Source: Pseudomonadota bacterium (GTDB taxonomy: Bacteria > Pseudomonadota > Gammaproteobacteria > Burkholderiales > Burkholderiaceae_C). From it: DNA of 51,312 nucleotides. Both the position numbers and the translations under genes were made by a program. Of this stretch, positions 16,056-47,558 are shown piece after piece; the first letter of the stretch is position 1, and the number at the start of each line of letters is the position of its first letter. The stretch is taken from NCBI GenBank assembly GCA_018242005.1, contig JAFECU010000206.1:1-51312 (forward strand), read 5' to 3'. Below the pieces are notes generated by a model, which ran no database searches, was not told the origin of the DNA, and saw only the letters and a program-made list of their open reading frames with translations.

Positions 16056-17966
16056 TCAGCGTCCGCGCAGGAACAGCGCGTCCAACTCTTTCATGCCGAG
16101 CTGGCGCCAGGTCGGACGGCCGTGGTTGCACTGGTCCGAGCGCTCGGTGATTTCCATCTGGCGCAACAGGGCGTTCATCTCGTCGATGGTCAGGCGCCGG
16201 TTGGCACGCACGGCGCCGTGGCAGGCCATGGTGGCCAGAATCTCATTGCGCGCGCGCTCCACCACGGTGCTGGCGTCATGCTGGCCCAGCTCGGCCAGCA
16301 CGCTGCGCGCAAGTTCCACCGGGTTGCCTTGCGCCAGCTGGGTGGGCACGGCGCGCACGGCCAGGGTGCGCGGCGAGAACGGCACGACCTCCAGCCCCAG
16401 CAGGGCCAGCGTATCGGCATGGGCCTCGGCCGTGGCCACCTCTTCCGGCGTGGCGGCGAAGGTGGCGGGGATCAGCAGCGGCTGGCTGGCAATGCGCGCG
16501 CCCTGATCCACCTGGGACTTGAGCCGCTCGTAGACGATGCGCTCGTGCGCCGCGTGCATGTCCACGATGACCATGCCCTGGGCGCTCTCGGCCAGGATGT
16601 ACACGCCATGGATTTGCGCGACGGCGCGGCCCAGGGGCCAGGTGGCCGCGTTGTCTGCGGGCGCGGCAGTCGTGGTGGGGGCGGGCGATAGGGCCTCGGC
16701 CGCTGCGGCCGGCACGGCGGTGGGCATGGGCGGGCGTTTCGGCGCCGCGGTGGCGCCCCACAGGGCCTGCAGGTCGGAGACCTTGTGACCCACGCGATCA
16801 TCAAAATTTATAGTTGCTTGCGATTGCCAGATGGGTGTTTGATGTAGCTTTTTATCAAACTCGACCAGAGAGTCGGTGGTAGCAGCTACAGAAACAGAAG
16901 CGAGCGCCTGAGCGCGCGGCGCGGCCAGGGCGTTTTCCACGGCGTGGCGCACGGCCTGGTGCACCTCGCGGCTGTCGCGAAAGCGTACCTCTATCTTGGT
17001 CGGGTGCACGTTCACGTCCACGCGCTGCGGGTCGATCTGCACGTAGAGCGCGTACACGGGCTGCTTCTGGCCGTGCAGCACGTCCTCGTAGGCGCTGCGC
17101 GCCGCGTGGGTGAGCACCTTGTCACGCACGAAGCGGCCGTTGACGTAGCAGAACTGCTGGTCGGCGCGCGAGCGCGCTGCGTCCGGCAAACCCGCGCGGC
17201 CCGTGACGGTGACGGTGCCCAGGCGCAGCTGCACGGGCACGGAGTTCTCGATGAAGTCCTCGCCCAGCACATCGGCCAGGCGTTGCTGCAGGGCGGCCTC
17301 TGCGGTGATGGCTTCCGCCGCGGTGGCGCGCCACTGCTCGACCAGCTTGCCCTCGTGCCAGATGGCAAAGCCCACGTCGGGCCGGGCCAGCGCGTGGCGG
17401 CGCACGGCCTCCACGCAGTGGGCGAGCTCGGTGGCGTCGGTCTTGAGGAACTTGCGCCGCGCGGGGGTGGAGAAAAACAGCTCCTTGACCTCCACGGTCG
17501 TGCCCTGGCTGCGCGCCGCGGGGCGCAGCTCGCCGCTGCGCGCATCCAGCAGGAAGGCGCTGGCCTGCTGCGCGGTGCGCGAGAGCAGCGCCATTTCGGA
17601 CACCGAGGCAATCGCGGCCAGCGCCTCGCCGCGAAAGCCCATGGTGGCGACCGACTCCAGGTCGTGCAGGTTGGTGATCTTGCTGGTGGCGTGGCGGCGC
17701 AGGGCCACGGGCAACTCGTCGCGTGGAATGCCAGCGCCGTCGTCCTCCACGGCAATCAGGCGCACGCCCCCGGCCAGCAGGCGCACGGTGACTTGCGTCG
17801 CGCCGGCGTCGAGCGCGTTGTCCACCAGCTCGCGCACAGCCGATGCCGGGCGCTCCACCACCTCGCCCGCGGCGATCTGGCTGATCAGCTCGTCGGGCAG
17901 GTCGCGTATCGGACGGCGCGCGGTGGGGGTGGGATGTGCAGGGGATTCAGGGGGCAGGGCGGTCAC
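16056..17966 (-). CDS. mutL: DNA mismatch repair protein MutL (endonuclease-type)
   Basis: MutL couples MutS mismatch recognition to strand incision. The 636-residue product starts at a GTG. The GHKL ATPase motifs are ELVDNALDAG (about 46-55), DDGAGI (75-80) and GFRGEAL (110-116). The C-terminal domain has DMHAAHERIVYE at about 469-480, matching the DxHAx2Ex4E metal site of nicking MutL proteins, which E. coli MutL lacks. CNHGRPT near the C-terminus is also conserved. A lysine/glutamine-rich segment at about 368-390 in the linker is encoded by an AT-rich repeat. No Shine-Dalgarno precedes the GTG; a TACAAT box lies six bases upstream. Confidence 0.95.
   Translation of the reverse strand: MTALPPESPAHPTPTARRPIRDLPDELISQIAAGEVVERPASAVRELVDNALDAGATQVTVRLLAGGVRLIAVEDDGAGIPRDELPVALRRHATSKITNLHDLESVATMGFRGEALAAIASVSEMALLSRTAQQASAFLLDARSGELRPAARSQGTTVEVKELFFSTPARRKFLKTDATELAHCVEAVRRHALARPDVGFAIWHEGKLVEQWRATAAEAITAEAALQQRLADVLGEDFIENSVPVQLRLGTVTVTGRAGLPDAARSRADQQFCYVNGRFVRDKVLTHAARSAYEDVLHGQKQPVYALYVQIDPQRVDVNVHPTKIEVRFRDSREVHQAVRHAVENALAAPRAQALASVSVAATTDSLVEFDKKLHQTPIWQSQATINFDDRVGHKVSDLQALWGATAAPKRPPMPTAVPAAAAEALSPAPTTTAAPADNAATWPLGRAVAQIHGVYILAESAQGMVIVDMHAAHERIVYERLKSQVDQGARIASQPLLIPATFAATPEEVATAEAHADTLALLGLEVVPFSPRTLAVRAVPTQLAQGNPVELARSVLAELGQHDASTVVERARNEILATMACHGAVRANRRLTIDEMNALLRQMEITERSDQCNHGRPTWRQLGMKELDALFLRGR
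16800..16862. repeat. AT-rich palindromic element, copy A, in frame in mutL
   Basis: An AT-rich island inside mutL begins TCAAAATTTATAG, continues TTGCTTGCGATTGCC and GGTGTTTGATGTAGC, and ends TTTTTATCAAA. The order of parts matches the other copies (TCAAAA, then a TTGCGCTTG-like arm, then a mirror arm, then TTTTGA/ATCAAA). It is read as a lysine-, glutamine- and isoleucine-rich peptide in the MutL linker and keeps the frame open. Confidence 0.6.
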
Positions 17967-17978
17967 GCGGTCATTGTA
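17966..17978 (-). promoter_or_regulatory. TACAAT -10 box abutting the mutL start; three-codon mini-ORF
   Basis: On the minus strand TACAAT (17973-17978) is six bases before the GTG, so transcription would start at or next to the start codon and give a leaderless mRNA. The same bases contain ATG ACC GCG TGA, a three-codon ORF whose TGA overlaps the mutL GTG (GTGA). No good -35 is visible. Both readings are inferences from spacing. Confidence 0.4.
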
Positions 17979-18004
17979 GGTGCCGACCCCGTGGCCCACG
18001 CGCT

Positions 18005-46306: not shown

Positions 46307-46312
46307 TAAATT
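46307..46312 (+). promoter_or_regulatory. -10-like TAAATT abutting the coaBC start
   Basis: TAAATT ends eight bases before the coaBC ATG, with no Shine-Dalgarno between. This spacing would start the transcript at the ATG, giving a leaderless mRNA. A TTGTCC sequence 15 bases upstream could be a weak -35. Confidence 0.35.
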
Positions 46313-46319
46313 GCGCCCC

Positions 46320-47558
46320 ATGAATGAGCTTGCTGGCAAACATATCGTCCTGGGCCTGAGCGGAGGCGTGGCCTGTTACAAGTCCGCCGAACTGACGCGC
46401 CTGCTCACCAAGGCCGGCGCCAGCGTGCAGGTGGTGATGACCGAGGCGGCCGAGCAGTTCATCACGCCCGTGACCATGCAGGCGCTGTCGGGCCGCGCCG
46501 TCTATGCCTCGCAGTGGGATGCGCGCGAGGCCAACAACATGGCGCACATCAACCTGTCGCGCGAGGCGGACGCCATCCTCATCGCGCCCTGCAGCGCCGA
46601 CTTCATCGCGCGCCTGGTGCAGGGGCGGGCCGACGAGCTGCTGAGCCTCATGTGCCTGGCGCGGCCCATCGAGCGCGTGCCACTGCTGGTCGCGCCCGCC
46701 ATGAACCGCGAGATGTGGGCCCACCCGGCCACGCGGCGCAACCTGGCCCAGCTGGCGCAGGATGGCGCCACCGTGCTGGGCGTGGGCAACGGCCCCCAGG
46801 CCTGCGGCGAAACCGGTGACGGGCGCATGCTCGAGGCCGAGGAGATCCTGGAGGAGCTCGAGATCTTCTTCGCGCCCAAGCTGCTTACCGGCGAGCAGGT
46901 ACTGATCACGGCCGGCCCGACCTTCGAGGCGATCGACCCGGTGCGCGGCATCACCAATCTGTCGAGCGGCAAGATGGGCTTTGCCATCGCCCGCGCCGCG
47001 CGGGCGGCCGGGGCCGAGGTCACGCTGGTCGCCGGCCCCGTGCACCTGCCCACGCCGCGCGGCGTGCGGCGCATCGACGTGCGCTCTGCGCAGAACATGC
47101 TTGAAGTGGTTGATGGGCAAGCGCGAGATGCTACTGTGTTCATAGCAACCGCGGCCGTGGCCGACTGGCGCCCGGCCAGCAGCGCCGAACACAAGATCAA
47201 GAAGGACGGCTCGGGCCAGACGCCGCAGCTCGCCTTTGTGGAGAACCCCGACATCCTGGCCACCGTGGCGCAGTCCGAGCGTGCCCGGTCCGGGGCCTTG
47301 TACTGCGTGGGCTTTGCCGCCGAGAGCGAGAACCTGCTCGCCCACGCCCAGGCCAAGCGCGCGCGCAAGGGCGTGCCGCTGCTCGTGGGCAACATCGGTC
47401 CGGCCACGTTCGGGCAGGACGACAACGCCCTGCTGCTCGTCGATGCCCAGGGCCACCGCGAACTGCCGCGTGCGCCCAAGTCCGAGCTGGGCCGCCAGCT
47501 CGTGGCCGAGATCGCGCGGCGCCTGGGCGGGGCGTCCAGGCAGACTTTTGCGTCATGA
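46320..47558 (+). CDS. coaBC: Bifunctional phosphopantothenoylcysteine decarboxylase/synthase
   Basis: CoaBC makes 4'-phosphopantetheine precursors for coenzyme A. The 412-residue product has the N-terminal flavoprotein CoaC domain (about 5-180) with LSGGVACYK, the PAMNREMW motif and NGPQACGETGDGRM, and the C-terminal CoaB ligase domain starting around LITAGPTFEAIDPVRGITN. A TTG nine bases upstream is a less likely start. Residues about 262-277 are coded by a decayed copy (G) of the AT-rich repeat. It diverges from pyrG. Confidence 0.96.
   Translation: MNELAGKHIVLGLSGGVACYKSAELTRLLTKAGASVQVVMTEAAEQFITPVTMQALSGRAVYASQWDAREANNMAHINLSREADAILIAPCSADFIARLVQGRADELLSLMCLARPIERVPLLVAPAMNREMWAHPATRRNLAQLAQDGATVLGVGNGPQACGETGDGRMLEAEEILEELEIFFAPKLLTGEQVLITAGPTFEAIDPVRGITNLSSGKMGFAIARAARAAGAEVTLVAGPVHLPTPRGVRRIDVRSAQNMLEVVDGQARDATVFIATAAVADWRPASSAEHKIKKDGSGQTPQLAFVENPDILATVAQSERARSGALYCVGFAAESENLLAHAQAKRARKGVPLLVGNIGPATFGQDDNALLLVDAQGHRELPRAPKSELGRQLVAEIARRLGGASRQTFAS
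47105..47149. repeat. AT-rich palindromic element, copy G, in frame in coaBC (decayed)
   Basis: AGTGGTTGATGGGCAAGCGC and GATGCTACTGTGTTCATAGC resemble the second half of the family consensus (TGATGGATAAGCGC... GCTATT-TTTTGATAGC). Local A+T is well above the surrounding gene. The dyad is weak, so this is the least certain copy. Confidence 0.4.

What the first reader, a model, noticed from the sequence alone, without database searches (positions are those of the whole stretch)
16800..47149. Seven-member family of AT-rich palindromic elements, several inside genes
Copies at 16800, 25884, 30557, 36983, 41764, 43625 and 47105 share an order of parts: TCAAAA-type ends, a TTGCGCTT-like arm, a 6-7 base loop, an AAGCG(C/T) arm and AGCAGC-TAT-TTTT/ATCAAAA. 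They are strikingly AT-rich against a GC-rich background. Three are within or across gene spacers and four keep a reading frame open. None occurs in the 13-kb nuo operon. This recalls the Rickettsia palindromic elements that insert in frame, but in a betaproteobacterium.
Basis: partly seen in the sequence, partly recalled or inferred. Interest (0 to 1): 0.75.

Follow-up and report, generated by a model that had tools for sequence, protein, structure and literature searches.

The report
Gene-embedded palindromic repeats in Comamonadaceae
A family of roughly 50-base hairpin sequences is scattered through Acidovorax-type bacteria, mostly just after genes, where it looks like a transcription stop signal, but sometimes embedded in frame inside conserved genes, at places that have stayed the same across related genera.

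Summary
A 52-column profile from 32 intergenic copies elsewhere in the genome finds exactly six sites in the window (16803, 30555, 36988, 41768, 43624, 47090), all above every one of 800 random window segments. The seventh (25884) is not established. The family is abundant: 16 to 271 near-matches per genome in eight genomes, none for the reversed pattern. Titled hosts include Acidovorax, Comamonas, Diaphorobacter, Simplicispira and Giesbergeria.

Most copies lie within 30 nt of a gene 3' end and avoid divergent spacers; the best window copy is a strong hairpin terminator on both strands. Others are read in frame inside mutL, mutS, aroE, selO, trmJ, moeA and coaBC. In trmJ and moeA they add about 14 to 26 residues that element-poor genera lack; in aroE, mutS, selO and coaBC no length is gained. 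Positions are largely shared within the genus and partly between genera, so the family is old; recent movement is not shown and no transposase partner was found.

Best reading: an old REP/RPE-like palindrome family, kept as terminators between genes and tolerated as coding sequence. How it spread is unsolved.

The parts
41768..41819 (+). best copy: hairpin between convergent genes (ABC transporter, ftsB), terminator-like on both strands
   Evidence: R1 69.2 bits (a training copy); held-out profile 67.7; folds -29.8 / -28.4 kcal/mol, no shuffle as good
30555..30606 (-). copy over the queG stop codon, between convergent genes
   Evidence: profile 39.1; R1 15.7 bits partial; same place in G125, G004, G122
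36988..37039 (+). copy inside the DUF455 gene near its start, frame open; orientation ambiguous (R1 prefers the - strand)
   Evidence: profile 34.7; R1 19.2 bits - / 16.4 +; same place in five congeners
43624..43675 (-). copy in the tandem spacer upstream of enolase
   Evidence: profile 32.5; same spacer in congeners
16803..16854 (+). copy inside mutL, in the linker between the N and C domains, frame open
   Evidence: profile 25.2; Pfam domains; same place in G125, G004, G122
47090..47141 (-). decayed copy inside coaBC, frame open; better kept in congeners (36-47)
   Evidence: profile 15.6; congeners; codons in carriers
   Evidence: profile -15.7, p 0.014; G004 ortholog 13; G003 codons unlike the element

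Best explanation
An old family of short imperfect palindromes: A-rich end, AGCTGCTnGCGCTT arm, 7-nt loop (often GATGGAT), AAGCGCnnGCAGCT-type arm, T-rich end, 52 nt in all. It spread in an ancestor of the Acidovorax/Comamonas/Diaphorobacter group and has since been inherited mostly in place. SHOWN: abundance, sharing of sites within the genus and partly across genera, placement at gene 3' ends, hairpin-and-T-tract anatomy of good copies, and in-frame copies in conserved genes, two of which (trmJ, moeA) gain residues. INFERRED: spacer copies act as intrinsic terminators, often for both strands, and are kept for that; in-gene copies survive where the protein tolerates them and in phases without stops; the original spread was non-autonomous copying of a hairpin DNA (REP- or RPE-like), now inactive in this genus.
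For: 16, 38, 37, 109, 87, 21, 271 and 52 pattern matches (both strands, so some copies counted twice) in eight genomes, reversed pattern 0 in all. Own genome: 49 of 56 copies in classed spacers, 5 in genes; divergent spacers 2 of 50 with an element against 36 of 124 without, p 1.7e-4; 41 of 51 non-genic copies within 30 nt of a gene 3' end. Terminator anatomy of 41768. Positions shared in the genus and at recA, lpd and Ham1-family (rdgB) spacers in other genera. Same rare-type codons in aroE, selO, mutS of several genera, profile 23-67 against -9 to -37 in element-poor genera. Net gain: TrmJ 39-51 residues between anchors in five carriers (94 in the own genome, with another repeat) against 21-25 in six element-poor genera, 33 in G018; MoeA 36-40 in six carriers (88 own) against 10-20 in eight without.
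Against: No transposase partner or target duplication was found: a Y1 transposase occurs in 10 of 10 genomes, rich or poor in the element. In aroE, mutS, selO and coaBC no element-poor ortholog compared is shorter, which fits plain insertion badly. Only 41768 and, weakly, 36983 of the window copies fold better than most shuffles, and terminator-like sites in 30001-48000 (10) hardly exceed shuffles (8.1). Stem covariation is weak (28 both-side cells against 20.1, 7 of 500 shuffles; other measures within shuffles). No expression data.
Confidence: 0.6

Rival explanations
1. A DNA-level signal selected or driven in place, like DNA uptake sequences of Neisseria and Pasteurellaceae: biased uptake, or a binding protein, pulls many loci toward one sequence, so copies arise inside genes without length change and pair up as terminator hairpins.
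For: No net length gain in aroE, mutS, selO, coaBC; mutS of element-poor G022 already codes LQK where the element starts; terminator hairpins from uptake sequences are known (PMC1852404, passages); congeners keep 53-69 at 41768 where random 20% change would leave about 31.
Against: No hyperabundant short k-mer in about 179 kb of window and congener sequence; the motif is about 50 nt and counts are far below the 1,000 or so quoted for uptake signals; trmJ and moeA show real gain of residues.
Confidence: 0.17
2. A currently mobile REP/REPIN or RPE-type element moved by a RAYT or another transposase.
For: High copy number, palindromic form, one single-copy Y1 transposase in the own genome; an element lies just upstream of that gene in G010 (L073:1380, 24.6 bits).
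Against: Positions are shared in the genus; the transposase is in element-poor genomes too; the own transposase locus has no R1 match at E<=10.
Confidence: 0.15
3. No family: ordinary terminators plus chance AT-rich coding patches.
For: Decayed copies fold no better than shuffles; R1 finds only three of seven window sites.
Against: Reversed-pattern control 0 in eight genomes; held-out profile finds six sites, none in controls at that level; element-poor orthologs score far lower.
Confidence: 0.03

Closest known systems
Rickettsia palindromic elements (RPE)
   Same: Palindromic repeats, many copies, between genes and in frame inside unrelated conserved genes, giving recurring peptides (PMC10969869, passages)
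   Different: About 52 nt here against about 150 bp; mostly intergenic and terminator-like here; several genes show no net length gain; betaproteobacteria
REP / REPIN sequences with RAYT transposases
   Same: Short high-copy palindromes at gene 3' ends, avoiding divergent spacers (general REP knowledge, recalled)
   Different: No GTAG or CGTC tag at the ends, no tie to the Y1 transposase, copies inside genes
DNA uptake sequences paired as terminators (Neisseria, Pasteurellaceae)
   Same: One sequence supplies many terminator hairpins and also occurs in genes
   Different: About 50 nt, tens to hundreds of copies, no abundant 9-12 nt core found
Beta-proteobacterial repeat element, BRE (PMC3110155)
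   Same: Betaproteobacterial repeat, reported in Acidovorax, Delftia and Polaromonas; mostly intergenic, some wholly inside coding sequence
   Different: Full length about 90 bp and 69% GC in Bordetella; not this element by size and composition (sequences not compared)

Membership tests
Rickettsia palindromic elements | In-frame copies inside unrelated conserved genes | tested here: met
   aroE, selO, mutS, trmJ, moeA, mutL, coaBC, DUF455 gene
Rickettsia palindromic elements | Copies add residues relative to orthologs without them | tested here: inconclusive
   Yes in TrmJ and MoeA; no net gain in AroE, MutS, SelO, CoaBC; HI0933-like protein mixed
Rickettsia palindromic elements | Length about 100-150 bp, host Rickettsia | tested here: not met
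   52-nt core in Comamonadaceae
REP with RAYT | GTAG or CGTC tag at one end | tested here: not met
   Consensus of 33 copies begins AAAAAnAATAGCTGCT and ends in T-rich sequence, no such tag; the tag rule is from the title and abstract start of PMC3733652
REP with RAYT | Copy number follows the transposase, element beside its gene | tested here: not met
   Y1_Tnp in 10 of 10 genomes, rich or poor; flanking R1 match in G010 and one G015 IS-like locus, not in the own genome
MITE | Target site duplication at insertion | not tested
   No fresh insertion with an empty allele was found in the stretches compared
DNA uptake sequence | Short core, 1,000 or more copies | tested here: not met
   No such k-mer; 16-271 matches per genome
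DNA uptake sequence | Preferential uptake of DNA carrying it | not testable with these tools
   Needs transformation experiments
Intrinsic (Rho-independent) terminator | Stable hairpin followed by a T tract just after genes | tested here: met
   41768 on both strands; 41 of 51 non-genic copies within 30 nt of a 3' end; decayed copies do not fold well
Intrinsic (Rho-independent) terminator | Causes transcripts to end | not testable with these tools
   No RNA data
BRE (PMC3110155) | About 90 bp, about 69% GC | tested here: not met
   52 nt; GC 0.35-0.63 over the matched parts of the copies; BRE values from section 14
Any Rfam 15 family | Match at or above gathering score | tested here: not met
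   0 matches in the window

The most novel reading that the evidence does not exclude
A roughly 50-nt DNA sequence has been written into unrelated conserved genes in place, without changing protein length, by a process acting on DNA sequence rather than by insertion (biased uptake, annealing of a hairpin single strand, or template switching at partly similar sites), and the same sequence doubles as the group's terminator hairpin.
Probability: 0.2. Interest if true: 0.85.

Novelty: new variant of a known kind. Interest (0 to 1): 0.62.

Why it matters
In-frame palindromic repeats in conserved genes are best known from Rickettsia, an intracellular lineage with decaying genomes (recalled). Here a largely free-living betaproteobacterial group carries them in MutS, MutL, AroE, TrmJ, MoeA and CoaBC, at sites shared between genera. 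That gives many natural pairs with and without the segment for asking how repeat DNA becomes protein sequence, and a testable case of one repeat family supplying part of a clade's terminators.

Tried and rejected
Rejected: BRE as identity (PMC3110155: outline, section 14 and passages). An Rfam family. A short uptake-type k-mer. The Y1 transposase as partner. Chance. My early view that 47105 was spurious was overturned.

Led nowhere: a regex scan timed out; a script failed and was rerun. One plasmid match, Comamonas odontotermitis, was not followed. Literature searches (open-licence PubMed Central only) listed no paper that I recognised as describing this element; other papers were not opened. 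PMC12306157, PMC1852404, PMC2755013, PMC3733652 and PMC10969869 were seen only as search listings, passages or term counts.

Limits and dropped rows: one search scored 150 of 3246 first-look candidates, so its 92 matches (some are both strands of one copy) are a floor, and I took 56 copies from 52 fetched stretches plus the window. R1 uses 11 of 13 aligned copies, the two poorest dropped. Of 42 flank pieces prepared 33 were sent; one (L019) found no match and one (L027) hit another repeat. R1 at E<=1 in the 60 fetched orthologous stretches (51 with a match) is lax: 40 of 60 reach E<=0.001, and one weak match (L125) looks like an ordinary GC hairpin. One search skipped 11 copies near locus ends, and its 9 genic copies include repeats of the same gene (aroE twice, selO twice, moeA twice). 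Orthologs without a returned locus were not compared (some aroE and selO). G022 mutL was not found; six xdhA or mutL rows were not found; G010 moeA did not fit the length rule. Genes were called with my own codon-score ORF picker. The names TrmJ, SerC, RdgB, Lpd, ZapE, RecX, Rph and KdsA-like are my recognition; Pfam gives the wider families.
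Full report
WHAT WAS CHECKED. The window is contig 118 of a 3.96-Mb assembly in 313 contigs, 91% complete. The copy at 41764 found 15 matches in its own genome, itself on both strands included. Thirteen copies were aligned; 11 of them align without gaps and gave a covariance model R1 with a 19-pair hairpin. R1 finds 92 matches at E<=1 in the genome, a floor because 150 of 3246 candidates were scored, and some are both strands of one copy.

THE SEVEN SITES. A weight matrix from 32 intergenic copies, without the window's own, with a small gap allowed at the loop, scores six of the seven sites 15.6 to 67.7; the best of 800 random window segments is -7.1. 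A full scan gives those six and nothing else above -6.2; the reversed window peaks at -4.5. Site 25884 fails (-15.7). R1, trained with 41768 among its 11 copies, is stricter and lists only 41768, 36989 and 30570.

HOW COMMON. A 28-base pattern with at most three mismatches matches 16, 38, 37, 109, 87, 21, 271 and 52 times in G000, G004, G125, G010, G085, G003, G015 and G072, both strands summed, so palindromic copies can count twice; the reversed pattern matches none. In a draw of 120 genomes of the family, 22 match R1 at E<=0.001. G010 has a contig of 857111 bases, the length of a Diaphorobacter nitroreducens record, so it is probably that species (inference).

WHERE COPIES SIT. Of 56 own-genome copies, 34 lie in tandem spacers, 13 in convergent, 2 in divergent, 1 unclassed, 5 inside genes and 1 at a gene edge. 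Spacers of 40 nt or more are divergent in 2 of 50 with an element and 36 of 124 without (Fisher p 1.7e-4); 41 of 51 non-genic copies lie within 30 nt of a gene 3' end; coding density of the stretches is 0.90. In 146 further loci (116, 30) I counted 85 tandem, 36 convergent, 4 divergent, 3 with one neighbour and 9 genic copies, 11 skipped. The models were trained on intergenic copies and the pattern holds an in-frame stop in one reading, so genic copies are under-counted.

TERMINATOR-LIKE ANATOMY. Copy 41768 folds at -29.8 and -28.4 kcal/mol on its two strands and no shuffle does as well; in 30001-48000 it has the longest terminator-like stems (15 and 14 pairs, next best 7), although the total of such sites (10) hardly exceeds shuffles (8.1). 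Copies 30557, 16800 and 47105 fold no better than shuffles, 36983 moderately (4 and 5 of 200 shuffles as good), 43625 weakly (18 of 200). Stem covariation over 33 copies is weak. At the lpd spacer, element-poor G007, G011 and G013 have, by eye, an ordinary GC-rich hairpin in spacers of 70, 75 and 64 nt (G005: 52, no such hairpin noted), against 77-81 nt in five carriers and 104 in G018, which has a decayed copy.

FIXED POSITIONS. In syntenic stretches of G125, G004, G122, G120 and G121 the profile gives 27 sites at 10 or more and none in the reversed stretches. The coaBC site of G120 and site 25884 of G125 and G122 stay below 10. For further own sites, 60 orthologous stretches were fetched; 40 hold an R1 match at E<=0.001 and 51 at E<=1. 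Of the nine without, several show a decayed copy and three (L083, L085, L089) show none by eye. At 41764 G124 has an unrelated hairpin, and G004 has the loop exactly inverted, ATCCATC for GATGGAT. By eye, the recA-downstream copy recurs in G010, G085 and G072 but not G003; the lpd copy in G010, G003, G072 and G085; the copy before the Ham1-family (rdgB) gene in G010, G072, G085 and G003.

INSIDE GENES. In aroE, selO and mutS, carriers G010, G003, G085 and G072 (and G015 for selO and mutS) keep element-like codons such as CTA CAA AAA ... GAG CTG CTn GCG ... CAA GCG, giving LQK-ELLAL-QAP-like peptides in three unrelated proteins; profile scores are 23 to 67, against -9 to -37 in the 15 element-poor orthologs compared. 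No element-poor ortholog is shorter there: AroE equal in three and one residue longer in G018; SelO equal in two, two longer in two; MutS equal in four, longer in three. CoaBC carriers G072, G010, G015, G085 and, less clearly, G003 have element-like codons (GCG CAn GAn GCT ... ATA GC) where element-poor G018, G011, G013 and G007 have the same length and other codons and G022 is longer. The MutL linker has CAA GCG CAA/CAG GCA GCT ATn in G072, G010 and G015. TrmJ and MoeA do gain residues: TrmJ 39-51 between anchors in five carriers, 94 in the own genome, 33 in G018, 21-25 in six element-poor genera; MoeA 36-40 in six carriers, 88 in the own genome, 10-20 in eight without, among them the carrier genus G003. 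In an HI0933-like protein the picture is mixed: three element-poor orthologs are shorter, others not. Antisense copies in moeA (two Acidovorax), a GDP_Man_Dehyd-family gene and the HI0933-like gene read LASSAYPSSASSYQ or close to it. By my reading, of 12 genes seen the AAGCG arm is in one phase in seven (AroE, SelO, MutS, TrmJ, DUF455, CoaBC, MutL), a second in four (MoeA, dehydratase, HI0933-like, ECH_2) and a third in one (ThiC, past the Pfam domain).

OTHER REPEATS AT THE SAME PLACES. In this genome only, a GC-rich repeat of about 153 nt (41856-42008) sits in the 3' end of ftsB beside copy 41768; six congeners lack it and its core has many dispersed matches. A third repeat (CTCTCCC type) is in frame beside the element in both trmJ and moeA of this genome, and in none of the 12 other genomes compared for trmJ or the others aligned for moeA. 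Element sites may be tolerant places for later insertions.

MECHANISM. Shared sites, decay in some lineages and upkeep in others argue for an old spread followed by selection on spacer copies. Random change at 20% would take the 41764 copy of G122 from 63 to about 31, while five congeners keep 53-69; four-fold sites differ by 20-22% from this genome. This is suggestive only, since four-fold sites in biased genes understate neutral change and the simulation ignores selection on codons. What spread the copies is open: the Y1 transposase is in all ten genomes tested whatever their load. In-gene copies without length gain fit insertion poorly; I give the in-place reading 0.2.

VERDICT. Real, widespread, old, partly coding; closest in kind to RPE and REP, a member of neither by the tests made; not found described in the searches named.

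Noticed in passing
window 41856-42008: GC-rich repeat of about 153 nt in the 3' end of ftsB, absent in six congeners, GCGC at both edges; its core has many matches in the genus genomes. It could be a BRE relative (not tested).
   Followed up: partly
L027:1398-2339; L399 and L390: A CTCTCCC-type repeat is inserted in frame in both trmJ and moeA of this genome, right beside the palindromic element.
   Followed up: partly
L072, L074, L071, L070: A Y1-type transposase gene with GGGGTCAGA/TCTGACCCC-type sequence on its flanks; present in all ten genomes tested.
   Followed up: partly
L067 and 19 other places in G015: G015 has 20 Y1_Tnp matches and also the most palindrome matches (271); cause unknown.
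   Followed up: no
window 41791-41797 against L054: The loop of the 41768 hairpin is exactly inverted in G004, as if it had flipped between its arms.
   Followed up: no
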